Shown here: piece by piece, positions 19,149 through 55,093 of the stretch
Layout: each line of letters begins with the position of its first letter
Position numbering within the stretch: position 1 is the stretch's first letter
Source of the DNA: Unio delphinus
Lineage: Eukaryota; Mollusca; Bivalvia; Unionida; Unionidae
NCBI GenBank assembly: GCA_029339505.1
Contig: JAQISU010000132.1
Span: 5,558,001-5,622,000 of the forward strand
DNA: 64,000 nucleotides
Reading direction: 5' to 3'
The notes under the pieces: model-generated
The model's input: only the letters and a program-made list of their open reading frames with translations
Databases searched by the model: none
What the model was told of the DNA's origin: nothing
Made by a program: the position numbers and the translations under genes

Positions 19149-19485
19149 TGTTGTCGATAATGCCAAGCTTTTCTATAAATTAATGTTATAATGTTTTACT
19201 CAGACTTGACTGTGATGTGTTGATCATAATAAATTCAAATTGCTACACTTTTAACTATGCATAATTTCCGGTTCTGCCAGCCTACATTTAAGTTATTGGA
19301 TGGAAGCCAAGAATACTGAAAGCGGTAAAGAATCGTGAACGAAACAAAGCTATACAAAACTTTCTTTAAAAATAATCAGTTTTAAAGTTAGTTTCGTTAA
19401 AGAAGTATAGTTGGTACAAATTTGTTTTTTCGAGTTTTAATAAACAAAAACATAATGTTATACTCAACTTTCAACCCTGTGAAAT

Positions 19486-19553: not shown

Positions 19554-19654
19554 TTAAATGCAAAATGTAGACGGTGAATAATGATTGTCCCTTTTATTTC
19601 TCTAGACTGTCTATGTTCCAAATATGAAACTGAATAAAAATGATAAAGGCATGG

Positions 19655-27484: not shown

Positions 27485-27490
27485 CTGGGG
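27485..27490. repeat. Target-site duplication, left (CTGGGG)
   Basis: Six bases identical to 46,367-46,372 immediately outside the element end. Six-base duplications are the rule for Polinton/Maverick integrases. Confidence 0.92.
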
Positions 27491-27500
27491 AGTAGTTAAT

Positions 27501-27945
27501 GGGGACTATCTAGCGTCAATGGGAAAATCCTATGTTAAACAGCTTGGGACACTCTAGCGTCAAGGGGAATTTAACATGGTGGGGACTATCTAGCGTCAAG
27601 GGGAATTTAACATTGTGGGACTATCTAGCGTCAAGGGGAATTTAACATTGTGGGACTATCTAGCGTCAAGGGGAATTTAACATTGTGGGACTATCTAGCG
27701 TCAAGGGGAATTTAACATTGTGGGACTATCTAGCGTCAAGGGAAATTTAACATGGTGGGGACTATCTAGCGTCAAGGGGAATTTAACATGGTGGGACTAT
27801 CTAGCGTCAAGGGGAATTTTAACATGGGAACTATTTGGGACTATCTAGCGTCAAGAGGAATTGAACATGGTGGGACTATCTAGCGTCAAGGGGAATTGAA
27901 CATGGGAATTATTTGGGCCTATCTAGCGTCAAGGGAAATTACAAG
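27501..27945. repeat. Subterminal 35-bp tandem repeats, left end
   Basis: About twelve units of GGGACTATCTAGCGTCAAGG + GGAATTTAACATT (about 35 bp). They could be binding sites for a replication or packaging protein; that is inference. Mirrored at 45,912-46,356. Confidence 0.9.
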
Positions 27946-28823
27946 AAAAAAAAAAATGGTGGCAAAGAAACCTACTATCTTTTCGAGGTATAGGAGTGGC
28001 CCAAAAAACAAACCACACAATATCCTATCAAAACAGAAGGGAAGGAAAATAAAATCACACAATCTCCTATACACACAGAAGGAAAGGAAAACAAAACAAT
28101 GATAATTAAGAATACCATACATTCTATGTGAAATATGTTCATTTTCATTCATTCATCGATTTAGTAAAATGGTAAGGTGATATTTATTGTCGACTGACTT
28201 CTTAACATATATCAAATTTAAGGGATGTCCTGTGTTTCTATGCACACGCTTCAAACAATGTTGCGAAGTTGTAATAAATCTAAGTCGAAGGGGGGAAAAA
28301 TCAACAGTAAATATGCTTTGTTCTATCGACAGTCTAAGATGTGTGTTATGATTTGAAATTCAAAGTTAACCATAGGCAGGCCTATAAAGTGCAATGTCAC
28401 TCGCGTCAGTCATTGTTACATTGTTACAATTCTTCCGAGCGTGTGTTTTGGTTGTGGCATTTTTATTTCAAAGTTAGCCATAAGCAGGGTTATACAGTGC
28501 AAGATCACTCGTGTCGTTCTTGAAATAGTTTTGTAGTTGTTTCCTTTCTAAAAAACGGTAGAGCTCATGCTTAAAAAAAATTCCGTGACACATTGCAGTG
28601 CCAATTATTAAAATAAAGCTCTGATAACTGAATTGTACAAGTTTGTCAACTCAAGATTTTATTTCATCCAACGATTTACTGACTGACTATTTGTAAGAGG
28701 GCGTAGCGTTTGAAAAACAAATTACATGACAAAAGAAAATTATGGTGCCTACTGATTAAAATTTTGGAGAGGTATCTTCAAACGGGAAAATCTACCATCA
28801 GGATTTCAATCAAACGTATTACG

Positions 28824-28826
<3 letters not shown>

Positions 28827-28886
<60 letters not shown>

Positions 28887-28887
28887 C
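28827..28887. repeat. (GA)n microsatellite, left arm
   Basis: A GA run with one interrupting A. Its mirror at 44,963-45,033 is nine bases longer and uninterrupted, one of the few differences between the arms. Confidence 0.95.
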
Positions 28888-29902
28888 TACGTTATACCTA
28901 CTTTAAAAAAGAATCAGGACACATTCGCTTGTTTTTCTGGTATATTTTCCTTTAGAAAAATTCAAAGAAACACACATCCCACTTAGAAAATCAATTCCAT
29001 AGGAAAGGTCCACGATTTTAAAATATCTCCAGAGTGAACCGATGACAAATACGACTAAAATGTTCTCACAGAATAGTACATCCAAACATGTTTCAGTATA
29101 TTTCGCAATAAGACTGACATTTCTACGATGGTGCGATTATTTGTGCATAAGTTTTATTGTTTGGAAAGTGACTAGTGGACAGGTACAGAAATACACGACT
29201 TATCTTCTCGCTGTCAGAATAACAACTGAAGCCGATTTGAAGCGAAGGCGGTAAAAAATATCGGTTTGCCAATGAAATCACTTACAATGAGTGACGCATT
29301 GTTTGGTTGGAAATTCAAGGTAGGTCGTGTAGTGGTCAGGCACAGAAAAAAACACGTCTTATCTTGTCACTGTACTAAGAAAGAGTGACGGCATTTTGAA
29401 CCTAAGGGGTAGAAAAAATGTGTAGTCAATAAATTGCTTATAAGGACTGGCGCATTGTTTTGCCTAGGCTCATGCATTGATTCAATTGCAGCGCAGACAG
29501 ACTGGAGTGTGAACTTACAAGCCCTTTGTTGCACATTGTACCATTTCTTCATGACACATCAACTACTTAATTGCAATTATTGTTCGAGTTTTAAAACTGA
29601 ACCAAAAAAAAATATTTTCTCACTTTGACAGAAACACATTCGTCTAGGTAGAGACAAAATAAAAAATACGCTCTCAAGTTGTTCCCATTGCAATGCAGAC
29701 TGGAATGTGAACTTATATCCCTCCGTTGTGTATTGTAACATTTCTTCTTACCACATCAACTACTGAATGGTCACAGTATTCGTACCATTTCTTTTTACCA
29801 CATCAGCTACTGAACGGTCCCAGTACTGGTTCGCATTTTGAAACTGACACTTTATATGTTTCTGACTTAACCATTTTGACGTACACACTCACATCGGTAT
29901 AG

Positions 29903-30265
29903 TCAAGAGTGGTGCAGTATTAAGTGGCATGGTTTTTCATTTTCTTTTTTTTTTGTTCTTTTTCTTTTCAAACTTGTGAATCTGGGATTTGTACGAATTA
30001 ACGAAGCAAGTTCAGTGACCTCGAGGATAAAAAACCCAGTTGTCTGTCTATTGATGTGAATATTTACATTAAAAACAATATGACCTGCAAAACACAAAGA
30101 TATACGGCAAGCATGATTAGAATGAACACAACAACACCTAACTGTTGTAACAAAGAGATATTTTTCTTCACGTCCGCGTAACTTAAAGTTTCGGTCCTCT
30201 TTCAAGACAAACTTGGTATGCTTTTGTGAGCGTGAAATTAAAATACTGAAGAAACTTAAGCGCAT
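29903..30265 (-). CDS. Unrecognised 120-codon frame in the left arm
   Basis: An ATG-started frame of 120 codons with a basic C-terminus (SLKRKRTKKKENEK) and no recognisable domain; two cysteines pairs near residues 44-57. It is identical to 43,585-43,947 in the right arm. Length and basic tail would fit a small DNA-binding or virion protein, but it may be a chance frame. Confidence 0.3.
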   Translation of the reverse strand: MRLSFFSILISRSQKHTKFVLKEDRNFKLRGREEKYLFVTTVRCCCVHSNHACRISLCFAGHIVFNVNIHINRQTTGFFILEVTELASLIRTNPRFTSLKRKRTKKKENEKPCHLILHHS

Positions 30266-30604
30266 TGCTATAGACTATAGTATACATAATTTCAGCAACA
30301 AACTAAACAAAATAAATACCGTTACAACAATAGACAGCCCGAAATCGTCAATTAAAAAAGAAATGCGTTAAAAAAATAATTAAAGATTAACGATGGTTAA
30401 GCAATACAACCGAATTTAAGAAAAGCAATGGGATTTGTATATAGTCCTTTCACTCTGATATTGTATGCGGATGTAATCTGCCATGTATTAACAGCTTGTA
30501 AAAAGGAATACGCAAAGAGAAACCTCAATTTAAACTGACTTTTTCAGATTTGTTCCTTCTTTTTATTTTTTGGGAACACTTCTAAACACCATTCAAGGAA
30601 AATA

Positions 30605-30904
30605 CACATATCAAAACATACTATTTACTATCCACACACCGGTAAGCAGGCAAAACAAACCACATCATTTACTAACCAATATCACACCATCTACCATCCA
30701 CACACACACAAAGAAGCAGCCAAACAAACCACAAAATCTACTATCCAATATCACACCATCTGCCATCCACACACGGAAAGCAGCCAAAATAAAACATACA
30801 ATTTACTATCCACACACAAGAAGCTGCCAAAAGAAAACAAACAATTTACTATCCACACACCGGTAAGCAGCCAAACACACCATTTACTAACTACACACAC
30901 ACAG

Positions 30905-30936
<32 letters not shown>

Positions 30937-31196
30937 ACGGGGAAGCAGCCAAAACACACCCTATTATATACTATCCAAAATCACACCCTATACTATCCAC
31001 ACACACGGGGAAGCAGCCAAAACACACCCTATTATATACTATCCAAAACACACCCTATACTATCCACACACACGGGGAAGCAGCCAAAACAAGCCAAACC
31101 CTTTACTATCCAAAATCACACCCTATACTATCCACACACACGGTGAAGCAGCCAAAACAAGCCATATTATATACTATCCAAAATCACACACTATAC

Positions 31197-31231
<35 letters not shown>

Positions 31232-31560
31232 GGAAGCAGCCAAAAACAAATCCTACTATATACTATCCAAAATCACACCCTATACTAACCACACACACGG
31301 AAAAGCAGCCAAAACAAGCCATATTATTTACTATCCAAAATCACACCCTATATTATCCACACACACCGGGAAGCAGCCAAAAAAAGCCATATTATATACT
31401 ATCCAAAATCACACCCTATACTAACCACACACACGGGGAAGCAGCCAAAACACACCCTATTATATACTATTCAAAATCACACTCTATACTATCCACACAC
31501 ACACACGTGAAGCAGCCAAAACAAACCAAACCCTTTACTATCCAAAATCACACCCTATAC

Positions 31561-31595
<35 letters not shown>

Positions 31596-34455
31596 GGAAG
31601 CAGCCAAAACACACCCTATTATATACTATCCAAAATCACACCCTATACTATCCACACACACGGGGAAACAGCCAAAACAAGCCATATTATTTACTATCCA
31701 AAATCACACCCTATACTATCCACACACACGGGGTAGCAACCAAACCACACCCTATTATTTACTATCCAAAATCACACCCTATACTATCCACACACACGGG
31801 GAAGCAGCCAAAACACACCCTATTATATACTAACCAAAATCACACCCTATACTATCCACACACACGGGGAAGCAGCCAAAACAAACCAAACCCTTTACTA
31901 TCCAAAATCACACCCTATACTATCCACACACACGGGGAAGCAGCCAAAACAAGCCATATTATATACTATCCAATATCACACCATCTGCCATCCACACACG
32001 GAAAGCAGCCAAAACAAGCCATATTATATACTATCCAAAATCACACCCTATACTATACACACACACACAGACACACACGGGGAAGCAGCCAAAACACACC
32101 CTATTATATACTATCCAAAATCACACCCTATACTATCCACACACACGGGGAAGCAGCCAAAACAAGCCATATTATTTACTATCCAAAATCACACCCTATA
32201 CTATCCACACACACGGGGTAGCAACCAAACCACACCCTATTATTTACTATCCAAAATCACACCCTATACTATCCACACACACGGGGAAGCAGCCAAAACA
32301 AGCCATATTATATACTATTCAAAATCACACTCTATACTATCCACACACACACACGTGAAGCAGCCAAAACAAACCAAACCCTTTACTATCCAAAATCACA
32401 CCCTATACTATCCACACACACGGGGAAGCAGCCAAAACACACCCTATTATATACTATCCAAACTCACACTCTATACTATCCACACACACACACGGGGAAG
32501 CAGCCAAAAACACACCCTATTATTTACTGTCCAAAATCACTATACTATCCACACACACGGTGAAGCAGCCAAAACAAGCCATATTATATACTATCCAAAA
32601 TCACACTCTATACTAACGACACACGGAAAGCAGGCAAAACAAACCACATCATTTACTAACCAATATCACACCATCTACCATCCACACACACACAAAGAAG
32701 CAGCCAAACAAACCACAAAATCTACTATCCAATATCACACCATCTGCCATCCACACACGGAAAGCAGCCAAAACAAGCCATATTATATACTATCCAAAAT
32801 CACACCCTATACTATACACACACACACACACACACACGGGGAAGTAGCCAAAACACACCCTATTATATACTATCCAAAATCACACCCTATACTATCCACA
32901 CACACGGGGAAGCAGCCAAAACACACCCTATTATATACTAACCAAAATCACACCCTATACTATCCACACACACGGGGAAGCAGCCAAAACAAACCAAACC
33001 CTTTACTATCCAAAATCACACCCTATACTATCCACACACACGGGGAAGCAGCCAAAACAAGCCATATTATATACTATCCAAAATCACACCCTATACTATA
33101 CACACACACACAGACACACACGGGGAAGCAGCCAAAACACACCCTATTATATACTATCCAAAATCACACCCTATACTATCCACACACACGGGGAAGCAGC
33201 CAAAACAAGCCATATTATATACTATCCAAAATCACACCCTATACTATCCACACACACGGGGAAGCAGCCAAAACAAACCAAACCCTTTACTATCCAAAAT
33301 CACACCCTATACTATCCACACACACGGGGAAGCAGCCAAAACAAGCCCTATTATATACTATCCAAAATCACACCCTATACTATACACACACACACAGACA
33401 CACACGGGGAAGCAGCCAAAACACACCCTATCATATACTATCCAAAATCACACCCTATACTAACCACACACACACGGGGAAGCAGCCAAAAACAAATCCT
33501 ACTATATACTATCCAAAATCACACTCTATACTATCCACACACACGGGGAAGCAGCCAAAACAAACCCTATTATATACTAACCAAAATAACACTCTATACT
33601 AACCACACACACGGGGAAGCAGCCAAAACACACCCTATTATATACTATTCAAAATCACACTCTATACTATACACACACACACAGACACACACGGGGAAGC
33701 AGCCAAAACACACCCTATTATATACTATCCAAAATCACACCCTATACTATCCACACACACGGGGAAGCAGCCAAAACAAGCCATATTATTTACTATCCAA
33801 AATCACACCCTATACTATCCACACACACGGGGTAGCAACCAAACCACACCCTATTATTTACTATCCAAAATCACACCCTATACTATCCACACACACGGGG
33901 AAGCAGCCAAAACACACCCTATTATATACTATCCAAACTCACACCCTATACTATCCACACACACAGGGAAGCAGCCAAAACAAATCATATTATATACTAT
34001 CCAAAATTACACTCTATACTAACCACACACACGGGGAAGCAGCCAAAACAAGCCATATTATATACTATCCAAAATCACACTCTATACTATCCACACACAC
34101 GGGGAAGCAGCCAAAACAAACCCTATTATATACTATCCAAAATCACACTCTATACTAACCACACACACGGGGAAGCAGCCAAAACAAGCCATATTATATA
34201 CTATTCAAAATCACACTCTATACTATCCACACACACACACACGGGGAAGCAGCCAAAAACACACCCTATTATTTACTGTCCAAAAGCACTATACTATCCA
34301 CACACACGGTGAAGCAGCCAAAACAAGCCATATTATATACTATCCAAAATCACACTCTATACTAACGACACACGGAAAGCAGCCAAAACGCACCATATTA
34401 TTTACTATCCAAAATCACACCATAAATTAACCACAAACACGGGAAGCAGCCAAAG
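30605..34455. repeat. 68-bp minisatellite with (CA)n inserts, left arm
   Basis: About 55 units built on CACACGGGGAAGCAGCCAAA, then ACACACCCTATTATATACTA, TCCAAAATCACACCC and TATACTATC. Many units carry (CA)n expansions. Since 68 is not a multiple of three and the units lack stops in most frames, long open frames (e.g. 32,355-33,602) arise by chance; they do not represent a protein gene. Confidence 0.95.
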
Positions 34456-34672
34456 AAGTCAAAGAGCATCTATATTTTACAAAAATGTAAAGCAAACGAC
34501 TGACGTATTGGTTTCAAAAGACATTTGTTTATTCATATAAGAAACAACTAACAAAACACAATTTTTTTCAACTAACAAATATTTCTTCCAAGAAGCAGTG
34601 TACGAACTACAGTTCAAAGGTAATAAAGTTACCAAGTATCCTTTTTTGTAGCCTTGTTTATTTTCCTTTCCT

Positions 34673-35146
34673 TCACAGGTGATGATAAGTCATCAATTCG
34701 ATCCAGACTTTTTGCTTGAAACGGTCTGTCAAGTAACTGTTGGTTAGATTCGTCTCCTTACTCTTGGTCAAGAGAGCTTCGATGCGATCAATTTCTTGAG
34801 CAAACATTGGAGGAGAGGAATGATCACGCAAGTCTTTATACCACTGAAGTAACACGTCTTCTTCTGGGATGAGACTCCAAGCTTCGTTCAGATAATCGTC
34901 CAATTTTTCTTTTTGACTATTCATCATATATTTATCGTGTTGAATTTGACTGGGATGATCGATTTGACATCCATAACAATCTTTTCTAATCATGTCCCTC
35001 ATTTTATCTTCCACGTGTTTGGCAAAACAGGTGACTAATTGTTGTTCCTGATCTAGCCATTTTACTTCATCATCACTACTTCTTCTTTTTGGTCTTGGGG
35101 TCTGCTTTCTCTTAAACCTCACATTCCATGTCCATGGATTCTCCAC
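34673..35146 (-). CDS. Polinton-associated 157-codon frame, left-arm copy
   Basis: Identical to the right-arm copy at 38,704-39,177; see there for description. It lies next to the antisense capsid-gene fragment and shares the same missing ATG (position 35,147-35,149 reads TAT on the plus strand, ATA on the coding strand). Confidence 0.55.
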   Translation of the reverse strand: MENPWTWNVRFKRKQTPRPKRRSSDDEVKWLDQEQQLVTCFAKHVEDKMRDMIRKDCYGCQIDHPSQIQHDKYMMNSQKEKLDDYLNEAWSLIPEEDVLLQWYKDLRDHSSPPMFAQEIDRIEALLTKSKETNLTNSYLTDRFKQKVWIELMTYHHL

Positions 35147-35206
35147 TATTCAAAGAGCGACAAGATTTGTCTAATAGTAGTGTCTAATAGTCTAAAATGA
35201 CTTCTT

Positions 35207-35505
35207 TCAAACTGTGATTTCTATGGTATTATCGAATTCGGCATACAGAATGACATTTACCGTTTCGGTAAGAGCTCTTGCAAACTGAAGTTCCACACGC
35301 AGTTGCCCATATTTTATAGGGTGGAAATGTCTCTCGTCGCTGCCTTGGTCTGGAGTGAAATCAAAAGCCCACAACGTGTAAGCTCCTGCCTAATCGTCGT
35401 AGGAAATGCCGTGACTGGTGTTGGTTCCTAACTGTCCTGTGGCTTCGTACACTGACAAGTACGACCTCAAGTAAGTCTTCTGGGCAAAATTGGGTTCGAA
35501 AGGTC
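35207..35505 (-). pseudogene. Major capsid gene 3' fragment (last 99 codons), left arm
   Basis: The reverse complement equals 38,345-38,643, the 3' end of the capsid pseudogene. The fragment starts abruptly at the arm/centre boundary without any 5' part, and it carries the same in-frame TAG (35,390-35,392) as the right copy (38,458-38,460). It marks the left arm as the derived copy. Confidence 0.9.
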
Positions 35506-35516
35506 AAGTCATCGAC

Positions 35517-35525
35517 TATAAAAAG
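35517..35525 (+). promoter_or_regulatory. TATA-like box at the start of the unique centre
   Basis: TATAAAAAG lies 12 bases before the ATG of the membrane-protein gene and 12 bases inside the arm boundary. Spacing is too short for that ATG to be the first codon of a conventional TATA-driven transcript, so its role is uncertain. Confidence 0.25.
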
Positions 35526-35536
35526 AAGTGACCATC

Positions 35537-35956
35537 ATGCCTTTCAATACAGCTTCAGTGACGACAGTGACTACTCCTTCACCCACTTCCTCTCTGCAAG
35601 ATTTACAAAAGCAACCTTTGTGGGTGTGGTGTGGAGAACGTGTCCCTAAAACGCAAATCGTCTTTTTCTGTCAAATCTTTGTAGTGTATTGTGTCATCGG
35701 TGCAGCCATTGCTAATTTGAGTTTGCAACAAGGAGACAAACAATTGTGGACCATTTTACTCAGCAGTTGCATCGGTTATCTTCTTCCCAATCCTTCCCTG
35801 AAATACTCTTACAACGGGAACAACAGTAACACTATTGGGAGTCTTGCGTCCAACGTTAGCCATTCTCCTAACAGTCCCCCTTCCAATCACAATCCTCTGT
35901 TAGATACTCCTTTAACCTTGAGTGACTCCTCGGACAGAAGAACATTAGAATTATGA
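35537..35956 (+). CDS. Polinton small membrane protein (two predicted helices)
   Basis: The ATG at 35,537 gives 139 residues; the frame extends three codons upstream to a GTG that I do not use. After a Ser/Thr-rich N-terminus comes a conserved-looking block VPKTQIVFFCQIFVVYCVIG (helix 1, about residues 38-60) and LWTILLSSCIGYLLPNPSLK (helix 2, about residues 70-90), then a Ser/Asn/Pro-rich tail. Proteins with an IVFFCQ helix and an LLSSC-GYLLPNP helix occur beside F54H12.2-like capsid genes in invertebrate Polinton/adinto-type elements (from memory). The stop overlaps the next gene's ATG by four bases (ATGA), as expected in a compact viral cassette. The frame is intact. A role in the virion or membrane is inference. 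Confidence 0.6.
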   Translation: MPFNTASVTTVTTPSPTSSLQDLQKQPLWVWCGERVPKTQIVFFCQIFVVYCVIGAAIANLSLQQGDKQLWTILLSSCIGYLLPNPSLKYSYNGNNSNTIGSLASNVSHSPNSPPSNHNPLLDTPLTLSDSSDRRTLEL

Positions 35957-36879
35957 ACCACACTATGAACCAATTTTACTTAACGTTACCCAGTGACAGT
36001 TCCATGGAGGTGTTTCCTAACAACACATTGTGCTGTTACACGTCTAAATTACCTCAAGTTATGCATTTGGATCAAGATGATCATTGGGAAGTAGCTTTAT
36101 TGGAAATGATACACCCGACACAAATCAAAAACATCGTCGAAAATCAAAACACTTTTACTGTAGAAGTGTATGACAAGCCATTGCAAGATGTCTTAGACGA
36201 ACGAGCCATCACTGGCATTGACACAAAAAAATCAGATGGACCACCAACTAAAACCCTGTCCACACATGTGTTCACCATTCCTGCAGGCTATTATTTTAGT
36301 GGTCAACATTTAGTGACTACACTGGCTACCAGGTTCAATAATCTGTTTGGTAAAACTATGGACAAAGCTAGAAAAAGTGTTACCTTTGAGTACAATAAAG
36401 TGGCTCGTCGTCTCATGATGAAATTTTCAGAGAACAAAATGATGGGCATTACCTTTTGTCCTGAATTGTTTGAGATTTTAGGTGGAGACTTAAGGATGGT
36501 CAAGAAAAAAGAAATACCAGGTATAGCCAGTAACTTGGATTTTACGAAATATTTTCGATTCCCTGTCGAAATGAACCAAGGACTCAACTTGATGTTTGTG
36601 TACTCCGATGTGGTGGAGTACAACGTGGTAGGACACACCTCTGTACCGTTACTGCGTGTTATTCCGTTCAAAGTGGATACCACTACCGCTGATGTGGAAG
36701 GTGGAAATACCTATCACGTTCACCGTGAATTTGTACATCCTCATTATTTGCCCGTCAGCAAGTTGTATTTCGACAGTGTCAACATTACTATAAAAGGAGA
36801 ACTAGGACAAAATATTCCATTTACCAAAGTGAAATTCACAGTGAAACTCCATTTTCAAAAACGATTCTCGAACAACTGA
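35953..36879 (+). CDS. Polinton structural protein, candidate minor capsid (penton-like)
   Basis: An intact 308-residue frame with no signal peptide or membrane helix. The N-terminus (NQFYLTLPSDSSMEVFPNNT) and the following LPQ-x5-LDQDDHWEVALLEM match a protein family found next to F54H12.2-like capsid genes in cnidarian, molluscan and nematode Polintons. The length suits the single jelly-roll minor capsid (penton) protein of Polintons, and the C-terminal half is beta-rich in composition, but I cannot confirm the fold. It overlaps the preceding gene by four bases and is followed after seven bases by the next gene. That this frame is intact while the capsid gene is broken is notable. Confidence 0.6.
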   Translation: MNHTMNQFYLTLPSDSSMEVFPNNTLCCYTSKLPQVMHLDQDDHWEVALLEMIHPTQIKNIVENQNTFTVEVYDKPLQDVLDERAITGIDTKKSDGPPTKTLSTHVFTIPAGYYFSGQHLVTTLATRFNNLFGKTMDKARKSVTFEYNKVARRLMMKFSENKMMGITFCPELFEILGGDLRMVKKKEIPGIASNLDFTKYFRFPVEMNQGLNLMFVYSDVVEYNVVGHTSVPLLRVIPFKVDTTTADVEGGNTYHVHREFVHPHYLPVSKLYFDSVNITIKGELGQNIPFTKVKFTVKLHFQKRFSNN

Positions 36880-36886
36880 AAATGTG

Positions 36887-37327
36887 ATGTATCCTGTGTA
36901 CCGAGATGTCAGTCGACAACGAGGACATGGTTTAGGAGATATGTTTGAATCAGCCTTTCGTTCCGTGGTCCCTGTTTTGAAACCGATGGTGACACGAGGA
37001 TTGCACGCCTTAAAAGATGCCGCATTGACTCACGGCAAAGATTTTCTCCATAATGTTCTCATTGACAAACAAAACCCCAAAGAAGCTTTTTTGAGAGCAG
37101 GCAAAAATGTCTTGCTTCAAACGGGTAAAGAGATTTAGGGTCGACGAGAAAGTCCTATAAATGCCCTGAACGGTACCGAGTCTGGCATTCCTGCTTCCCT
37201 GGTGACACAACAAGGACAAGGTAGAAAGCGACGACGAAGGCACCCTTCCAAACGTCTCCGTACCTCTAAAGCTAGAAAGACAAAGAAAAAAAGAACCGCT
37301 CGAGACTTAGACATTTTTGATTATTAA
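36887..37327 (+). pseudogene. Polinton core-protein-like basic gene (PX type) with one in-frame TAG
   Basis: The ATG at 36,887 opens a frame with a MYPVYR...RGHGLGDMF N-terminus and a hydrophobic/amphipathic stretch, ended by TAG at 37,136-37,138. The same frame then stays open for 62 codons with a strongly basic stretch (GRKRRRRHPSKRLR) to a TAA at 37,325. Small glycine-then-basic proteins with an RGHG/RGYG-type start accompany the capsid genes of adinto- and Polinton-type elements and have been compared with adenovirus core protein X. A single base change explains the break. Whether the 83-residue product is stable is unknown. Confidence 0.6.
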
Positions 37328-37358
37328 AAGCGAAAAACATAGAGACTGAGAGAAAAAA

Positions 37359-38643
37359 ATGATGCACTAAGATTCTTGTGCCTGTTCCAAGTCGGAACTA
37401 GATCTCTTTGCCATGCCACCCACGATGATGACCATGCAAGAAGCCCAATAGGTTGAATTTCATCCCATCTCCTCTTTGACGGATTCAGCTCCCATTGAGT
37501 TTGAAATCAACCCAAAGATTACATCGATCTGAACAACAGTTACTTGTATTTGAAAGTGAAAGTGATTAAATCGACGGACAACCCAATGCCCAAGTAGCTC
37601 CCGTTAACAATTTCATGCATTCCTTGTTCAGCGATGTGGATTTGTACATGAATAACAAACTGGGCAGCAGTAGCATGGATACTTACCCTTACCGAGCGTA
37701 CCTCGAAAATCTCTTAACGTACGGAAAAGAAGCCAAAAACACTCATCTAGATGCTTGCGTGGTATGGAAAACCTGACACAGCAGATAAGTTTATCGACAC
37801 AAACTTGTCCGTACTTGACGGTGAGAATCCCAATCTTCACAATGTGGGTTTTAACGAACGTCGAAAGAAAATTCTGCAAGGACGTAGTTTAGAACTGTTC
37901 GATCGTTTGCATTTGGACATGTAGTTTTAAGAGAAGTATTTGCTGAACGGAGTGGATATTCGCTTGAGACTGAATCGTAGCAGTACTGCTTTCCATTTGA
38001 TGGCTGATACCAACGACTACAAACCATGATCCAAGAAGCCAAGTTATACGTGCGTCGTGTGAAAGTGTTAACTAAAGTGGGAAATGATATCAGCCACACT
38101 TTGAGCAGAACGACAGCCAAGTATCCGATACGACGCGTGGAAGTCAAAACTTTCACCATTGCCGCAGGACTCCGATCTAAGATCGAAGATCATCTGTTCC
38201 AAGGACAGTTACCCAAACGTTTATTCATTGGTATCGTCAGCAATGCAGCCCTCAATGGTGCCTAGAATATCAATCCTTTCCAGTTTCAGCACTGTAATGT
38301 AACCAAACTCGAAGTCAGTTGCGGTGGCAAAACGTTGTGTACCCGACCTTTCGAACCCAATTTTGCCCAGAAGACTTACTTGAGGTCGTACTTGTCAGTG
38401 TACGAAGCCACAGGACAGTTAGGAACCAACACCAGTCACGGCATTTCCTACGACGATTAGGCAGGAGCTTACACGTTGTGGGCTTTTGATTTCACTCCAG
38501 ACCAAGGCAGCGACGAGAGACATTTCCACCCTATAAAATATGGGCAACTGCGTGTGGAACTTCAGTTTGCAAGAGCTCTTACCGAAACGGTAAATGTCAT
38601 TCTGTATGCCGAATTCGATAATACCATAGAAATCACAGTTTGA
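37359..38643 (+). pseudogene. Polinton major capsid protein, F54H12.2 type, broken
   Basis: Fragments in successive frames match the F54H12.2-like double jelly-roll major capsid family: an N-terminal CACSKSELDLFAMPPT, then VEFHPISSLTDSAPIEFEI, a YIDLNNSYLYLKVKV strand, FMHSLFSDVDLYMNNKLGS, and a C-terminal VILYAEFDNTIEI. Breaks: TAA 37,368; TAG 37,449; frame change about 37,512-37,517; frame change about 37,590; frame change about 37,760; TAG 37,922 and TAA 37,928; frame change about 38,022; TAG 38,263; TAG 38,458. The last 299 bases lie in the right arm. In working elements this protein builds the T=large icosahedral shell. The many lesions show that no capsid is made from this copy. Confidence 0.85.
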
Positions 38644-38703
38644 AAGAAGTCATTTTAGACTATTAGACACTACTATTAGACAAATCTTGTCGCTCTTTGA
38701 ATA

Positions 38704-39177
38704 GTGGAGAATCCATGGACATGGAATGTGAGGTTTAAGAGAAAGCAGACCCCAAGACCAAAAAGAAGAAGTAGTGATGATGAAGTAAAATGGCTAGATC
38801 AGGAACAACAATTAGTCACCTGTTTTGCCAAACACGTGGAAGATAAAATGAGGGACATGATTAGAAAAGATTGTTATGGATGTCAAATCGATCATCCCAG
38901 TCAAATTCAACACGATAAATATATGATGAATAGTCAAAAAGAAAAATTGGACGATTATCTGAACGAAGCTTGGAGTCTCATCCCAGAAGAAGACGTGTTA
39001 CTTCAGTGGTATAAAGACTTGCGTGATCATTCCTCTCCTCCAATGTTTGCTCAAGAAATTGATCGCATCGAAGCTCTCTTGACCAAGAGTAAGGAGACGA
39101 ATCTAACCAACAGTTACTTGACAGACCGTTTCAAGCAAAAAGTCTGGATCGAATTGATGACTTATCATCACCTGTGA
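38704..39177 (+). CDS. Polinton-associated 157-codon frame, right-arm copy
   Basis: An open frame of 157 codons, 60 bases after the capsid gene. It has a basic N-terminus (RFKRKQTPRPKRRSSDDE), then a central Cys/His motif DCYGCQIDHPSQIQHDKYMM (a conserved-looking C-x2-C...H-P-S-Q...H pattern), then a helical acidic C-terminal half. Proteins with a CYGC..DHPSQ..H signature recur in invertebrate Polinton-type elements (from memory); function unknown. No ATG is present at the start: the first sense codon is GTG and the preceding codon is ATA, suggesting a lost ATG in both arms; the next in-frame ATG is about codon 48. An AATAAA lies at 39,188. Confidence 0.55.
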   Translation: MENPWTWNVRFKRKQTPRPKRRSSDDEVKWLDQEQQLVTCFAKHVEDKMRDMIRKDCYGCQIDHPSQIQHDKYMMNSQKEKLDDYLNEAWSLIPEEDVLLQWYKDLRDHSSPPMFAQEIDRIEALLTKSKETNLTNSYLTDRFKQKVWIELMTYHHL

Positions 39178-39394
39178 AGGAAAGGAAAATAAACAAGGCT
39201 ACAAAAAAGGATACTTGGTAACTTTATTACCTTTGAACTGTAGTTCGTACACTGCTTCTTGGAAGAAATATTTGTTAGTTGAAAAAAATTGTGTTTTGTT
39301 AGTTGTTTCTTATATGAATAAACAAATGTCTTTTGAAACCAATACGTCAGTCGTTTGCTTTACATTTTTGTAAAATATAGATGCTCTTTGACTT

Positions 39395-42258
39395 CTTTGG
39401 CTGCTTCCCGTGTTTGTGGTTAATTTATGGTGTGATTTTGGATAGTAAATAATATGGTGCGTTTTGGCTGCTTTCCGTGTGTCGTTAGTATAGAGTGTGA
39501 TTTTGGATAGTATATAATATGGCTTGTTTTGGCTGCTTCACCGTGTGTGTGGATAGTATAGTGATTTTGGACAGTAAATAATAGGGTGTGTTTTTGGCTG
39601 CTTCCCCGTGTGTGTGTGTGTGGATAGTATAGAGTGTGATTTTGAATAGTATATAATATGGCTTGTTTTGGCTGCTTCCCCGTGTGTGTGGTTAGTATAG
39701 AGTGTGATTTTGGATAGTATATAATAGGGTTTGTTTTGGCTGCTTCCCCGTGTGTGTGGATAGTATAGAGTGTGATTTTGGATAGTATATAATATGGCTT
39801 GTTTTGGCTGCTTCCCCGTGTGTGTGGTTAGTATAGAGTGTAATTTTGGATAGTATATAATATGATTTGTTTTGGCTGCTTCCCTGTGTGTGTGGATAGT
39901 ATAGGGTGTGAGTTTGGATAGTATATAATAGGGTGTGTTTTGGCTGCTTCCCCGTGTGTGTGGATAGTATAGGGTGTGATTTTGGATAGTAAATAATAGG
40001 GTGTGGTTTGGTTGCTACCCCGTGTGTGTGGATAGTATAGGGTGTGATTTTGGATAGTAAATAATATGGCTTGTTTTGGCTGCTTCCCCGTGTGTGTGGA
40101 TAGTATAGGGTGTGATTTTGGATAGTATATAATAGGGTGTGTTTTGGCTGCTTCCCCGTGTGTGTCTGTGTGTGTGTGTATAGTATAGAGTGTGATTTTG
40201 AATAGTATATAATAGGGTGTGTTTTGGCTGCTTCCCCGTGTGTGTGGTTAGTATAGAGTGTTATTTTGGTTAGTATATAATAGGGTTTGTTTTGGCTGCT
40301 TCCCCGTGTGTGTGTGGATAGTATAGAGTGTGATTTTGGATAGTATATAGTAGGATTTGTTTTTGACTGCTTCCCCGTGTGTGTGTGGTTAGTATAGGGT
40401 GTGATTTTGGATAGTATATGATAGGGTGTGTTTTGGCTGCTTCCCCGTGTGTGTCTGTGTGTGTGTGTATAGTATAGGGTGTGATTTTGGATAGTATATA
40501 ATAGGGCTTGTTTTGGCTGCTTCCCCGTGTGTGTGGATAGTATAGGGTGTGATTTTGGATAGTAAAGGGTTTGGTTTGTTTTGGCTGCTTCCCCGTGTGT
40601 GTGGATAGTATAGGGTGTGATTTTGGATAGTATATAATATGGCTTGTTTTGGCTGCTTCCCCGTGTGTGTGGATAGTATAGGGTGTGATTTTGGATAGTA
40701 TATAATAGGGTGTGTTTTGGCTGCTTCCCCGTGTGTGTCTGTGTGTGTGTGTATAGTATAGGGTGTGATTTTGGATAGTATATAATATGGCTTGTTTTGG
40801 CTGCTTCCCCGTGTGTGTGGATAGTATAGGGTGTGATTTTGGATAGTAAAGGGTTTGGTTTGTTTTGGCTGCTTCCCCGTGTGTGTGGATAGTATAGGGT
40901 GTGATTTTGGTTAGTATATAATAGGGTGTGTTTTGGCTGCTTCCCCGTGTGTGTGGATAGTATAGGGTGTGATTTTGGATAGTATATAATAGGGTGTGTT
41001 TTGGCTACTTCCCCGTGTGTGTGTGTGTGTGTGTGTGTATAGTATAGGGTGTGATTTTGGATAGTATATAATATGGCTTGTTTTGGCTGCTTTCCGTGTG
41101 TGGATGGCAGATGGTGTGATATTGGATAGTAGATTTTGTGGTTTGTTTGGCTGCTTCTTTGTGTGTGTGTGGATGGTAGATGGTGTGATATTGGTTAGTA
41201 AATGATGTGGTTTGTTTTGCCTGCTTTCCGTGTGTCGTTAGTATAGAGTGTGATTTTGGATAGTATATAATATGGCTTGTTTTGGCTGCTTCACCGTGTG
41301 TGTGGATAGTATAGTGATTTTGGACAGTAAATAATAGGGTGTGTTTTTGGCTGCTTCCCCGTGTGTGTGTGTGGATAGTATAGAGTGTGAGTTTGGATAG
41401 TATATAATAGGGTGTGTTTTGGCTGCTTCCCCGTGTGTGTGGATAGTATAGGGTGTGATTTTGGATAGTAAAGGGTTTGGTTTGTTTTGGCTGCTTCACG
41501 TGTGTGTGTGTGGATAGTATAGAGTGTGATTTTGAATAGTATATAATATGGCTTGTTTTGGCTGCTTCCCCGTGTGTGTGGATAGTATAGGGTGTGATTT
41601 TGGATAGTAAATAATAGGGTGTGGTTTGGTTGCTACCCCGTGTGTGTGGATAGTATAGGGTGTGATTTTGGATAGTAAATAATATGGCTTGTTTTGGCTG
41701 CTTCCCCGTGTGTGTGGATAGTATAGGGTGTGATTTTGGATAGTATATAATAGGGTGTGTTTTGGCTGCTTCCCCGTGTGTGTCTGTGTGTGTGTGTATA
41801 GTATAGGGTGTGATTTTGGATAGTATATAATATGGCTTGTTTTGGCTGCTTTCCGTGTGTGGATGGCAGATGGTGTGATATTGGATAGTATATAATATGG
41901 CTTGTTTTGGCTGCTTCCCCGTGTGTGTGGATAGTATAGGGTGTGATTTTGGATAGTAAAGGGTTTGGTTTGTTTTGGCTGCTTCCCCGTGTGTGTGGAT
42001 AGTATAGGGTGTGATTTTGGTTAGTATATAATAGGGTGTGTTTTGGCTGCTTCCCCGTGTGTGTGGATAGTATAGGGTGTGATTTTGGATAGTAAATAAT
42101 AGGGTGTGGTTTGGTTGCTACCCCGTGTGTGTGGATAGTATAGGGTGTGATTTTGGATAGTAAATAATATGGCTTGTTTTGGCTGCTTCCCCGTGTGTGT
42201 GGATAGTATAGGGTGTGATTTTGGATTGTATATAATAGGGTGTGTTTTGGCTGCTTCC

Positions 42259-42295
<37 letters not shown>

Positions 42296-43245
42296 GTATA
42301 GGGTGTGATTTTGGATAGTAAAGGGTTTGGTTTGTTTTGGCTGCTTCACGTGTGTGTGTGTGGATAGTATAGAGTGTGATTTTGAATAGTATATAATAGG
42401 GTGTGTTTTGGCTGCTTCCCCGTGTGTGTGGTTAGTATAGGGTGTGATTTTGGATAGTATATAATATGGCTTTTTTTGGCTGCTTCCCGGTGTGTGTGGA
42501 TAATATAGGGTGTGATTTTGGATAGTAAATAATATGGCTTGTTTTGGCTGCTTTTCCGTGTGTGTGGTTAGTATAGGGTGTGATTTTGGATAGTATATAG
42601 TAGGATTTGTTTTTGGCTGCTTCCCCGTGTGTGTGTGTGTGTGTGTGTGTGTATAGTATAGTGTGTGATTTTGGATAGTATATAATATGGCTTGTTTTGG
42701 CTGCTTCACCGTGTGTGTGGATAGTATAGGGTGTGATTTTGGATAGTAAAGGGTTTGGCTTGTTTTGGCTGCTTCCCCGTGTGTGTGGATAGTATAGGGT
42801 GTGTTTTGGATAGTATATAATAGGGTGTGTTTTGGCTGCTTCCCCGTGTGTGTGGATAGTATAGGGTGTGATTTTGGATAGTATATAATAGGGTGTGTTT
42901 TGGCTGCTTCCCCGTGTGTATGTGTGTGTGTGTGTGTGTGTGTGTCTGTGTGTGTGTAGTTAGTAAATGGTGTGTTTGGCTGCTTACCGGTGTGTGGATA
43001 GTAAATTGTTTGTTTTCTTTTGGCAGCTTCTTGTGTGTGGATAGTAAATTGTATGTTTTATTTTGGCTGCTTTCCGTGTGTGGATGGCAGATGGTGTGAT
43101 ATTGGATAGTAGATTTTGTGGTTTGTTTGGCTGCTTCTTTGTGTGTGTGTGGATGGTAGATGGTGTGATATTGGTTAGTAAATGATGTGGTTTGTTTTGC
43201 CTGCTTACCGGTGTGTGGATAGTAAATAGTATGTTTTGATATGTG
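39395..43245. repeat. 68-bp minisatellite with (GT)n inserts, right arm
   Basis: Mirror of 30,605-34,455. Despite about 3.85 kb of tandem repeats the two arrays differ by only a few bases, mainly in (CA/GT)n length (e.g. four bases near 41,020-41,040 versus 32,817-32,838). Confidence 0.95.
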
Positions 43246-43584
43246 TATTTTCCTTGAATGGTGTTTAGAAGTGTTCCCAAAAAATAAAAAGAAGGAACAA
43301 ATCTGAAAAAGTCAGTTTAAATTGAGGTTTCTCTTTGCGTATTCCTTTTTACAAGCTGTTAATACATGGCAGATTACATCCGCATACAATATCAGAGTGA
43401 AAGGACTATATACAAATCCCATTGCTTTTCTTAAATTCGGTTGTATTGCTTAACCATCGTTAATCTTTAATTATTTTTTTAACGCATTTCTTTTTTAATT
43501 GACGATTTCGGGCTGTCTATTGTTGTAACGGTATTTATTTTGTTTAGTTTGTTGCTGAAATTATGTATACTATAGTCTATAGCA

Positions 43585-43947
43585 ATGCGCTTAAGTTTCT
43601 TCAGTATTTTAATTTCACGCTCACAAAAGCATACCAAGTTTGTCTTGAAAGAGGACCGAAACTTTAAGTTACGCGGACGTGAAGAAAAATATCTCTTTGT
43701 TACAACAGTTAGGTGTTGTTGTGTTCATTCTAATCATGCTTGCCGTATATCTTTGTGTTTTGCAGGTCATATTGTTTTTAATGTAAATATTCACATCAAT
43801 AGACAGACAACTGGGTTTTTTATCCTCGAGGTCACTGAACTTGCTTCGTTAATTCGTACAAATCCCAGATTCACAAGTTTGAAAAGAAAAAGAACAAAAA
43901 AAAAAGAAAATGAAAAACCATGCCACTTAATACTGCACCACTCTTGA
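43585..43947 (+). CDS. Unrecognised 120-codon frame in the right arm
   Basis: Identical to the left-arm frame at 29,903-30,265. No domain recognised; basic C-terminus. Confidence 0.3.
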   Translation: MRLSFFSILISRSQKHTKFVLKEDRNFKLRGREEKYLFVTTVRCCCVHSNHACRISLCFAGHIVFNVNIHINRQTTGFFILEVTELASLIRTNPRFTSLKRKRTKKKENEKPCHLILHHS

Positions 43948-44961
43948 CTATACCGATGTGAGTGTGTACGTCAAAATGGTTAAGTCAGAAACATATAAAG
44001 TGTCAGTTTCAAAATGCGAACCAGTACTGGGACCGTTCAGTAGCTGATGTGGTAAAAAGAAATGGTACGAATACTGTGACCATTCAGTAGTTGATGTGGT
44101 AAGAAGAAATGTTACAATACACAACGGAGGGATATAAGTTCACATTCCAGTCTGCATTGCAATGGGAACAACTTGAGAGCGTATTTTTTATTTTGTCTCT
44201 ACCTAGACGAATGTGTTTCTGTCAAAGTGAGAAAATATTTTTTTTTGGTTCAGTTTTAAAACTCGAACAATAATTGCAATTAAGTAGTTGATGTGTCATG
44301 AAGAAATGGTACAATGTGCAACAAAGGGCTTGTAAGTTCACACTCCAGTCTGTCTGCGCTGCAATTGAATCAATGCATGAGCCTAGGCAAAACAATGCGC
44401 CAGTCCTTATAAGCAATTTATTGACTACACATTTTTTCTACCCCTTAGGTTCAAAATGCCGTCACTCTTTCTTAGTACAGTGACAAGATAAGACGTGTTT
44501 TTTTCTGTGCCTGACCACTACACGACCTACCTTGAATTTCCAACCAAACAATGCGTCACTCATTGTAAGTGATTTCATTGGCAAACCGATATTTTTTACC
44601 GCCTTCGCTTCAAATCGGCTTCAGTTGTTATTCTGACAGCGAGAAGATAAGTCGTGTATTTCTGTACCTGTCCACTAGTCACTTTCCAAACAATAAAACT
44701 TATGCACAAATAATCGCACCATCGTAGAAATGTCAGTCTTATTGCGAAATATACTGAAACATGTTTGGATGTACTATTCTGTGAGAACATTTTAGTCGTA
44801 TTTGTCATCGGTTCACTCTGGAGATATTTTAAAATCGTGGACCTTTCCTATGGAATTGATTTTCTAAGTGGGATGTGTGTTTCTTTGAATTTTTCTAAAG
44901 GAAAATATACCAGAAAAACAAGCGAATGTGTCCTGATTCTTTTTTAAAGTAGGTATAACGT

Positions 44962-44962
<1 letters not shown>

Positions 44963-45033
<71 letters not shown>
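44963..45033. repeat. (CT)n microsatellite, right arm
   Basis: Perfect CT run, longer than its left-arm mirror. Confidence 0.95.
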
Positions 45034-45036
<3 letters not shown>

Positions 45037-45911
45037 GTAATACGTTTGATTGAAATCCTGATGGTAGATTTTCCCGTTTGAAGATACCTCTCCAAAATTT
45101 TAATCAGTAGGCACCATAATTTTCTTTTGTCATGTAATTTGTTTTTCAAACGCTACGCCCTTACAAATAGTCAGTCAGTAAATCGTTGGATGAAATAAAA
45201 TCTTGAGTTGACAAACTTGTACAATTCAGTTATCAGAGCTTTATTTTAATAATTGGCACTGCAATGTGTCACGGAATTTTTTTTAAGCATGAGCTCTACC
45301 GTTTTTTAGAAAGGAAACAACTACAAAACTATTTCAAGAACGACACGAGTGATCTTGCACTGTATAACCCTGCTTATGGCTAACTTTGAAATAAAAATGC
45401 CACAACCAAAACACACGCTCGGAAGAATTGTAACAATGTAACAATGACTGACGCGAGTGACATTGCACTTTATAGGCCTGCCTATGGTTAACTTTGAATT
45501 TCAAATCATAACACACATCTTAGACTGTCGATAGAACAAAGCATATTTACTGTTGATTTTTCCCCCCTTCGACTTAGATTTATTACAACTTCGCAACATT
45601 GTTTGAAGCGTGTGCATAGAAACACAGGACATCCCTTAAATTTGATATATGTTAAGAAGTCAGTCGACAATAAATATCACCTTACCATTTTACTAAATCG
45701 ATGAATGAATGAAAATGAACATATTTCACATAGAATGTATGGTATTCTTAATTATCATTGTTTTGTTTTCCTTTCCTTCTGTGTGTATAGGAGATTGTGT
45801 GATTTTATTTTCCTTCCCTTCTGTTTTGATAGGATATTGTGTGGTTTGTTTTTTGGGCCACTCCTATACCTCGAAAAGATAGTAGGTTTCTTTGCCACCA
45901 TTTTTTTTTTT

Positions 45912-46356
45912 CTTGTAATTTCCCTTGACGCTAGATAGGCCCAAATAATTCCCATGTTCAATTCCCCTTGACGCTAGATAGTCCCACCATGTTCAATTCC
46001 TCTTGACGCTAGATAGTCCCAAATAGTTCCCATGTTAAAATTCCCCTTGACGCTAGATAGTCCCACCATGTTAAATTCCCCTTGACGCTAGATAGTCCCC
46101 ACCATGTTAAATTTCCCTTGACGCTAGATAGTCCCACAATGTTAAATTCCCCTTGACGCTAGATAGTCCCACAATGTTAAATTCCCCTTGACGCTAGATA
46201 GTCCCACAATGTTAAATTCCCCTTGACGCTAGATAGTCCCACAATGTTAAATTCCCCTTGACGCTAGATAGTCCCCACCATGTTAAATTCCCCTTGACGC
46301 TAGAGTGTCCCAAGCTGTTTAACATAGGATTTTCCCATTGACGCTAGATAGTCCCC
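45912..46356. repeat. Subterminal 35-bp tandem repeats, right end
   Basis: Mirror of 27,501-27,945, with units read as CCTTGACGCTAGATAGTCCC. Confidence 0.9.
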
Positions 46357-46366
46357 ATTAACTACT

Positions 46367-46372
46367 CTGGGG
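46367..46372. repeat. Target-site duplication, right (CTGGGG)
   Basis: Identical to 27,485-27,490; marks the end of the Polinton insertion. Confidence 0.92.
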
Positions 46373-48835: not shown

Positions 48836-50027
48836 GACTTTCAAATGTGAAGTTTGTGATAAAAATTTTGAGCAACAAGTACGCTTTCTAGAAACACACG
48901 AGCTTAGATACTGGAGATGAACTGTTCCTGTTCCGGAAGTTTGTTATAAAACATTTAGTGCCAGAGGTCAGTTGATAAGAAATACAACAATTCATAGAGA
49001 TGAACCATCAATATGTCAAATTTGTGATGTAATGTCTTCTTATAGTTGTGTAATGGAGGCACACATGACGAAACATACTGGAGATAAACTATTCAAGTGT
49101 CAATTGTGCGATAAATCATTTAGGCAACGTGCCAGTTTGAAAATTCACAGAAGGATTCATACTGGAGAAAAGCCGTTCAAGTGTGACGTTTGTGATTCAA
49201 TGTTTGCCGAGCAAGGTGTTTTGAAAAAGCACATGATGATACATACTGGAGATAAACCATTCAAGTGTCATTTCTGTGCTAAATCATTTAGGCAAAGTAC
49301 TGGTTTGCTTAATCACACAAGAATTCATACTGGAGATAAACCATTCAAGTGTGAATTTTGTGCCAAAACATTTAGGCAGTCTTCCAATTTGAATACTCAC
49401 AGAAGGATTCATACTGGCGATAAGCTAGTTAGGTGTGAAATTTCTGGTATGCTGTTTAACCAGAGCGGTGCTGGGAAGATGTCAATGGATGCAGAAGGTT
49501 TTAAATGTGAAGTTTGTGATGCAATGTTCAGCAACATGTGTACTTTGAAGTTACACAAGAGTATACATACTGAAGATAAACCGTTCAAGTGTGAATTTTG
49601 TGCTAAAACATTTACGCAAAGTACAGGTTTGCTTAATCACACAAGAATTCATACTGGAGATGCACCGTACAAGTGTGAAATTTGTGCTAAAACATTTAGG
49701 CAAAGTACTGGTTTGCGTAATCACACAAGAATTCATACTGGAGATAAACCATTCAAATGTGAAATTTGTGCTAAAACATTTAGGCAAAGTACTGGTTTGC
49801 TTAATCACACAAGAATTCATACTGGAGATAAACCATTCAAGTGTGCAATTTGTGCTAAAACATTTAGGCAAAGTACTGGTTTGCTTAATCACACAAGAAT
49901 TCATACTGGAGATAAACCATTCAAGTGTGAAATTTGTGATAAACGCTTTAGACAGAGTGGTGGTTTGAAGGTGCACATGAGGAAACATAGGACAACAAAC
50001 ATTAAAGGGTCTACAGTAGAGCTTTAG
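48836..50027 (+). CDS. C2H2 zinc-finger protein with eleven fingers
   Basis: The open frame runs from 48,927 (after a TGA) to the TAG at 50,025 and encodes eleven canonical C2H2 fingers plus one degenerate unit (RCEISGMLFNQSGAGK, histidines missing) after finger 5. Upstream, 48,836-48,900 still encodes finger remnants (FKCEVCDKNFEQQ) cut by the TGA. The first in-frame ATG is 49,032, inside finger 1; a TTG at 48,972 is not a likely start. The true start may be in a spliced upstream exon, or the 5' end may be decayed. Fingers 4, 7, 8, 9 and 10 are near-identical copies with the same DNA-contact residues. No KRAB, BTB or SCAN domain is seen. Nuclear DNA-binding role expected. Confidence 0.75.
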
Positions 50028-53265: not shown

Positions 53266-53545
53266 TACTTGTGCTAGTTTATTCTTTTGTGGATTATATG
53301 GTATTAGGTAATTTTTTTTTATTCAGTGTAGAGCAGTACTCACAATTGTGAGTACTGTCAGTACTTTGATTTAACGTGTTTTTGCCCATAGTGAGCTAAA
53401 TCTCACTATTTTTTGCCAAATACGTGCATTTTTGCCGTGTAAATTTTTTTCACAATTTCAATTTCTAGTTTATTTAGATTAATTTTTCACAATTACTTTT
53501 TTCCGCACCCCTTTTTGCATAATTTTGATAGTGTCTTGTGCGAAA

Positions 53546-54997: not shown

Positions 54998-55093
54998 ATA
55001 AATAAATAAAAAGAAATAATAAATAACTATAGTAATTATCATAATTCTTATAAATACAAATCGTAATTTATAATTTATTTTATCTTATTGGAA

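What the first reader, a model, noticed from the sequence alone, without database searches (positions are those of the whole stretch)
27491..46366. An 18.9-kb Polinton that is a near-perfect giant palindrome
Seen: inverted arms of 8,015 and 8,022 bp, a 2,839-bp unique centre, perfect CTGGGG duplications and AG...CT ends. Known: Polinton inverted repeats are usually well under 2 kb. Inference: this is a distinct structural form in which about 85% of the element is inverted repeat. Its target duplications mean it was integrated as a palindrome or became one by conversion after insertion.
Basis: partly seen in the sequence, partly recalled or inferred. Interest (0 to 1): 0.95.

Follow-up and report, generated by a model that had tools for sequence, protein, structure and literature searches.

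The report
Giant palindromic Polintons that spread
An 18.9-kb virus-like mobile element in what is probably a bivalve genome is almost entirely two mirror-image halves; it belongs to a set of such elements that inserted as mirror images at many sites and look like the defective "snap-back" genomes some DNA viruses make.

Summary
Confirmed: arms of 8,015 and 8,022 bp (5 substitutions, 7 small indels), a 2,839-bp centre, CTGGGG duplications, AGTAGT...ACTACT ends. It is not a complete Polinton: it keeps an intact penton frame and a broken major capsid gene, and no polymerase, integrase core or ATPase was found in it.

The host genome shows how it moves. The same centre junction stands exactly at six sites, each with its own perfect 6-bp duplication, so the element inserted as a palindrome; conversion at a single site cannot explain this. 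Other elements with related ends have other centres: seven junctions were seen, loops about 90 bp to 3.6 kb. Both ends were read in 18 elements; 16 have perfect 6-bp duplications. Within the six-copy class the last 1.29 kb differ between copies at up to 25 sites, and in each copy the change is in both arms, so one arm is copied from the other.

Best reading (0.62): self-complementary, non-autonomous Polintons born by snap-back template switching during terminal (protein-primed) replication, resembling AAV snapback genomes, and mobilised in trans by the many Polintons with open polymerase frames in this genome. Repeated snap-back versus later centre deletion of one palindrome is unresolved. My paper searches listed no palindromic Polinton.

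The parts
27485..27490 (.). target-site duplication, left (CTGGGG)
46367..46372 (.). target-site duplication, right (CTGGGG)
27491..35505 (.). left arm of the palindrome, 8,015 bp
38345..46366 (.). right arm of the palindrome, 8,022 bp
35506..38344 (+). unique centre (loop), 2,839 bp
35505..35506 (.). class A junction: mirrored major-capsid sequence joined to the sequence just upstream of the membrane-type frame; about 1 bp overlap by eye
27545..27937 (.). subterminal repeats of about 35 bp, left
45917..46312 (.). subterminal repeats of about 35 bp, right
30933..34454 (.). AC-rich array of about 68-bp units, left arm
   Evidence: overlapping rows
39396..42939 (.). the same array mirrored, right arm
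   Evidence: overlapping rows
35537..35956 (+). small frame with a hydrophobic stretch (membrane-type by eye; no Pfam family over its cut-off)
35953..36879 (+). penton (PX-type minor capsid) frame, 308 aa, intact; called PY in my notes and script labels
36845..37327 (+). two basic small frames in one reading frame, parted by a stop at 37136-37138
37570..38643 (+). major capsid gene remains, broken by stops (among them 38263 and 38458) and frame changes; crosses into the right arm at 38345
35216..35503 (-). mirrored 3' part of the major capsid remains in the left arm
38701..39177 (+). conserved frame of unknown function with a CYGC motif, 158 aa, right arm
34673..35149 (-). the same CYGC frame mirrored, left arm

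Best explanation
It is a non-autonomous, self-complementary derivative of a Polinton (Maverick). A strand being copied inward from the capsid-gene end switched template and was copied back to the end it started from, so the polymerase end was lost, the capsid end was doubled and both termini became identical. Such molecules were replicated from their termini and inserted as whole palindromes by polymerase and integrase from other Polintons. During replication one arm is copied from the other, so changes appear in both. SHOWN: the palindrome, its ends and duplications; no detectable polymerase, integrase core or ATPase; one junction at six sites; several centre classes; symmetric changes; junction overlaps of about 1-3 bp where compared. 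INFERRED: snap-back as the birth step, protein-primed replication, supply in trans, and any replicative advantage of a strand that folds on itself.
For: Same 25-mer junction exactly at six sites, control 0, with six different perfect 6-bp duplications. Both ends read in 18 elements: 16 perfect duplications. Outer-arm query: 36 of 40 scored hits form 18 inverted pairs, no same-orientation pair. Terminal 1,290 bp within class A: C140 vs C247 21 of 21 variable ungapped sites symmetric, C534 vs C247 25 of 25, C140 vs C534 10 of 10. Junction overlaps about 1-3 bp by eye in classes A, B, D, E, F, G. A relative keeps the undoubled order integrase (rve and chromodomain)-membrane frame-penton (C64). 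Polymerase (PF03175) at 75 scored places with open frames mostly 1,356-1,368 aa, so possible helpers abound. AAV snapback genomes are a documented parallel (PMC8235507, passages).
Against: No free DNA form was seen; the helper is inferred. Inner-arm differences among class A copies are not symmetric (0 of 1-3 sites per pair), so arms are not perfectly homogenised. Centre deletions of one older palindrome could give classes A, B, E, F and G without new snap-backs. Penton pN/pS of 0.3-0.7 shows only weak constraint.
Confidence: 0.62

Rival explanations
1. The first palindrome arose in the chromosome (inverted duplication at a break, or aberrant gap repair after insertion) and was only later mobilised in trans as a non-autonomous element; the other centre classes are later deletions around the middle.
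For: Long palindromes are unstable and shed their centres (general knowledge); classes A, B, E, F and G can be written as centre deletions of a larger palindrome; C534 and C53 have such deletions.
Against: A chromosomal duplication would have to end exactly at the outer terminus of the element to be mobile; the 471-bp tree places undoubled elements C34, C514, C518 and C589 with class C and apart from A and from C203/C95 of D, suggesting more than one origin, with weak support.
Confidence: 0.25
2. The element inserted as an ordinary Polinton at this site and became palindromic afterwards by conversion or inverted duplication.
For: Target duplications alone do not exclude it; arms are nearly identical.
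Against: The identical junction stands at six sites with different duplications.
Confidence: 0.03
3. Assembly artefact: inverted chimaeric reads or a misassembled inversion.
For: Long palindromes are a known assembly problem (general knowledge); no raw reads could be examined.
Against: The flanks differ but share the 6-bp duplication; the arms carry small differences; the structure is assembled on many contigs with other duplications.
Confidence: 0.03
4. A Foldback/Galileo-like transposon with long internally repetitive ends that captured Polinton genes.
For: Long inverted ends holding tandem repeats, as in Galileo (PMC3573991, passages).
Against: Ends and 6-bp duplications are of the Polinton type; relatives with the same membrane-penton segment carry a Polinton-type integrase.
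Confidence: 0.02

Closest known systems
Polinton / Maverick (polintovirus)
   Same: (AGT)2...(ACT)2 ends and 6-bp duplications as reported for vertebrate Mavericks (PMC8097293, passages); penton and major capsid genes (PMC4028283, passages); size of 15-20 kb
   Different: no polymerase, integrase core or ATPase found; arms of 8 kb instead of 46-1,447 bp; capsid end doubled
AAV snapback genomes (a class of defective interfering genomes)
   Same: self-complementary, symmetric or asymmetric with a loop, one genome end doubled, replicate with proteins from elsewhere (PMC8235507, passages)
   Different: parvovirus, not protein-primed; found in virions, not reported there as a germ-line multi-copy family
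Foldback-like transposons such as Galileo
   Same: long, internally repetitive ends; end extension in non-autonomous copies (PMC3573991, passages)
   Different: P-element superfamily; TIRs of about 0.3-1.2 kb in those passages; no capsid genes
Palindromic derivatives of protein-primed linear DNAs (adenovirus incomplete genomes, yeast pGKL1 derivatives)
   Same: one end doubled by fold-back copying in linear DNA with terminal protein (recalled; not in the passages I saw)
   Different: not integrated in germ-line DNA; recalled only

Membership tests
[quoted passage not shown]
   No hit in the element with the 275-aa fragment of the C323 polymerase frame; the fragment is only part of the protein. 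The fragment's genome hits adjoin PF03175 hits in the same frames, e.g. C54, C147, C101.
Polinton / Maverick, autonomous | RVE integrase | tested here: not met
   Two integrase queries gave no core hit in the element; the only hit is the read-on tail of the C64 frame over the membrane-frame region at 35488-35646. Relative C64 has rve and chromodomain.
Polinton / Maverick, autonomous | packaging ATPase | tested here: not met
   No hit with the C81 ATPase (Pox_A32) or with a C34 frame assigned by eye (no Pfam hit).
Polinton / Maverick, autonomous | cysteine protease | not tested
   no protease query was run
Polinton-derived element | AG...CT ends and 6-bp target duplication | tested here: met
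   AGTAGT...ACTACT, CTGGGG; 16 of 18 elements perfect
Polinton-derived element | penton (single jelly-roll minor capsid) | tested here: met
Polinton-derived element | double jelly-roll major capsid | tested here: inconclusive
   Broken; assigned through the C93 fragment matching F54H12.2-like proteins. That these are Polinton capsids is recalled; no Pfam capsid hit to the fragment.
Defective interfering / snapback genome | one genome end doubled, self-complementary, both termini kept | tested here: met
Defective interfering / snapback genome | replication with helper proteins; interference with the helper | not testable with these tools
   needs cells or free DNA
Foldback-like / Galileo | P-element-type transposase relationship | tested here: inconclusive
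   No Pfam family over its cut-off in the nine frames scanned; not all frames were scanned, and non-autonomous copies lack the gene anyway

The most novel reading that the evidence does not exclude
Polintons in this genome keep throwing off snap-back genomes, and these behave as a self-propagating satellite class: self-complementary DNAs that keep capsid genes, replicate by copying one arm from the other and colonise the germ line with help from intact Polintons. The inverted polymerase pairs (30 of 32 neighbouring pairs) would be the counterpart at the other end. The genome would then hold an inherited record of a free replication stage that has not been seen directly.
Probability: 0.33. Interest if true: 0.86.

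Novelty: new variant of a known kind. Interest (0 to 1): 0.74.

Why it matters
Maverick particles have not been observed (PMC8097293, abstract in the listing), and to my knowledge (recalled) their replication is inferred from gene content. Palindromes with defined junctions that spread as palindromes are the footprint expected of a free, terminally replicating DNA stage, and make that stage testable: free palindromic or hairpin DNA should exist in cells. They would also show that the logic of defective genomes, known from AAV, can yield a germ-line mobile element, and that Polinton-type terminal repeats can exceed 8 kb.

Tried and rejected
Scans of viral contigs and genome contigs with the penton found no relative; one alignment was too divergent to search with. 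A first penton model from 12 sequences was poor (pLDDT 59) and was replaced. I first read the opposite orientation of some centres (C507, C37, C247) as loop flips and dropped that: such a palindrome has no orientation. In one search the 'open' states of C37 and C247 come from truncated pieces and are ignored. Weak Pfam hits below cut-off were not believed. The label polymerase for the C323 fragment was first given by eye; Pfam and NCBIfam on the two C323 frames and a solved-structure search on the fragment did not show it, and it rests on PF03175 hits lying next to fragment hits in the same open frames. A C81 frame that I noted as polymerase (L020:1-1734) has no family hit and is not claimed; the C34 ATPase label is by eye (no hit). 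I had noted C34-type relatives as plain parents; their integrase lacks about 0.3 kb relative to C64. Ends not both found: C242, C132, C34. C93's ends were not examined. The C49 polymerase-pair palindrome was not traced to its ends. One search's hairpin count was faulty and was replaced. Host: named relatives include the mussel Potamilus and oysters, but also an ant and a scorpion; 'bivalve' is an inference.
Full report
OBSERVATION. The palindrome is real and where it was said to be. Arms 27491-35505 (8,015 bp) and 38345-46366 (8,022 bp) align with 5 substitutions and 7 small indels; the centre is 35506-38344 (2,839 bp). CTGGGG flanks both ends, which read AGTAGTTAATGGGG inward. The arms hold subterminal repeats of about 35 bp and an AC-rich array of about 68-bp units, roughly 3.5 kb per arm, visible as opposite GC skew in the two halves.

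FAMILY IN THE GENOME. The host genome is held (2.5 Gb; the window lies on C140). A 1.2-kb end query gave 43 matches (40 of 4,012 candidates scored), in inverted pairs on 19 contigs and single on two. An outer-arm query of 1,591 bp gave 40 scored hits of 1,400 candidates: 36 form 18 inverted pairs, 4 (C323, C101, C95, C255) have no scored partner, and none pair in the same orientation. In ten further elements the two halves were compared: centres are 2,839 bp in C49 and C37, 2,836 in C247, 92 in C9, C94 and C214, 561 in C347, about 1,040 in C53; C534 is shortened; C81 is 35 kb with 3.9-kb repeats. Both ends were read in 18 elements: 16 have perfect 6-bp duplications, C94 lies in a (TTA)n run and was not counted, C114 matches 5 of 6; in three more (C242, C132, C34) both ends were not found.

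ONE JUNCTION, SIX SITES. A 25-mer across the class A junction is found exactly at six places (C37, C49, C134, C140, C247, C534); the reversed control gives 0. Their duplications are AAGATT, CATACG, AATGGC, CTGGGG, ACTAAT and CTAATT. This palindrome was therefore inserted as a palindrome, repeatedly.

SEVERAL CENTRES. A penton query gave 44 matches (40 of 2,716 candidates scored). Stretches at 20 of these places and the ten elements above were mapped to window coordinates. Junctions: A 38345|35506; B 36029|35934 (C9, C94, C214, C132, C144); C inside the integrase (C347, C114, C507, C81; C86 a rearranged relative without the same 30-mer); D 36073 joined to sequence upstream in the integrase region (C37b, C203, C95); E 36096|35546 (C89); F 37049|36034 (C93); G 39084|35506 (C154). 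C101 and C53 have other centres, not classed. All seven double the capsid-gene end; since queries came from that end and its termini, this is partly how they were found. Overlaps at the joints are about 1-3 bp by eye for A, B, D, E, F and G; C was not settled. Undoubled order integrase-membrane frame-penton is seen in C64 (rve and chromodomain) and, with an integrase lacking about 0.3 kb, in C34 and its near-copies C514, C518 and C589; C243 diverges upstream. In C34 the two ends match at 98.1% over 3,001 bp including array. Caution: A, B, E, F and G can also be written as centre deletions of a larger palindrome. A 471-bp tree puts C34 and its kin beside class C, and class A and two of three D elements elsewhere: more than one origin is suggested, not shown.

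SYMMETRIC CHANGES. In the terminal 1,290 bp (columns with gaps dropped), class A copies C140 and C247 differ at 21 sites, all symmetric; C140 and C37 21 of 21; C140 and C534 10 of 10; C534 and C247 25 of 25. In the 1,591-bp outer segment, class B copies C94 and C214 differ at 6 sites, 5 symmetric, and C9 and C94 at 7, 5 symmetric, but C9 and C214 at 1, not symmetric. In the 1,016-bp inner segment no class A difference is symmetric (0 of 1-3 per pair). So changes that arose after the palindrome formed were often copied to the other arm, most clearly at the ends, as expected if one arm templates the other in replication; gene conversion could do the same.

MECHANISM. Inferred: during copying from the capsid end the growing strand switched to its own or the displaced strand and ran back to its start, giving a hairpin with a long stem that becomes a linear palindrome with two good ends. 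Polymerase and integrase must come from elsewhere. PF03175 matches at 75 scored places (3,467 candidates), with open frames mostly of 1,356-1,368 aa; the C323 polymerase fragment has 140 scored hits (6,134 candidates) of at least 95% identity, some in the same frames. C81 holds an rve integrase, a helicase, an A32-type ATPase and a double-jelly-roll capsid gene. The closest documented parallel that I read is AAV snapback genomes (PMC8235507, passages).

POLYMERASE-END PAIRS. Among the 140 fragment hits, 32 neighbour pairs lie within 35 kb: 30 in (-,+) order, one (+,-), one (+,+); seven share a gap of 11.155-11.206 kb. One pair, C49 near 21.69 Mb, was sampled: mirrored stretches are 99.0% identical, and the axis lies in a 125-bp near-palindrome (92%; 45-46 of 60 bases paired ungapped). 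The sequence beside the axis resembles the outer arm and points towards the axis, so this is another design, perhaps two elements joined near an end. Its ends were not tested.

KNOWN OR NEW. Vertebrate Maverick repeats are 46-1,447 bp (PMC8097293, passages). Searches for palindromic, long-repeat, non-autonomous, snapback or bivalve Polintons (listings with titles and abstract starts) showed no report of this form; the library lacks most subscription journals, and searches listed only the top 15 or 25 of 44 to 1,147 papers. I rate it a new variant of a known kind. On this check I lowered the main confidence from 0.65 to 0.62 and the novel case from 0.35 to 0.33, because the inner-arm result and the gap in the C34 integrase weaken the picture slightly.

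Noticed in passing
window 7356-7929: Pieces 49-58% identical to the double-jelly-roll capsid protein of element C81: remains of a second Polinton lineage beside the palindrome.
   Followed up: no
G000 C81:6669214-6704204 (L019, L029, L030, L020): A 35-kb element with 6-bp duplication CTTCTA: its left part is a class C palindrome, its right part a different Polinton gene set (DJR capsid, helicase, rve integrase, A32 ATPase), as if a palindrome had fused with another Polinton.
   Followed up: partly
G000, e.g. C49:21687383-21700197: 30 of 32 neighbouring polymerase-fragment pairs within 35 kb are head to head; seven share a gap of 11.155-11.206 kb; one sampled pair is a palindrome.
   Followed up: partly
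G000: DJR capsid (PF21738) matches at 126 scored of 25,216 candidate places, many with open frames of 470-480 aa; none in 14 control genomes: a Polinton-rich genome.
   Followed up: no
P0001, P0030, P0042: Close relatives of penton (81%), CYGC frame (83%) and capsid (89%) come from ENA entries whose longest contig is 5,147 bp in all three cases, perhaps one contig from a related host.
   Followed up: no
window 53483-54997 and 55067-58411: Two adjacent long open frames (504 and 1,114 aa) that look like an intact non-LTR retrotransposon (by eye, not tested).
   Followed up: no
window 1-556, 17971-19172, 48921-50027: Frames with repeated HTGDKPFKC-type units of 84 bp, C2H2 zinc-finger-like by eye, on both sides of the element.
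   Followed up: no
window 2540-4395 and 22284-24158: Direct repeat of about 1.9 kb, 88.8% identical; 22571-23239 holds an endonuclease-like frame by eye.
   Followed up: no
window 19650-20715: Tandem array of 54-bp units, 19.9 copies.
   Followed up: no
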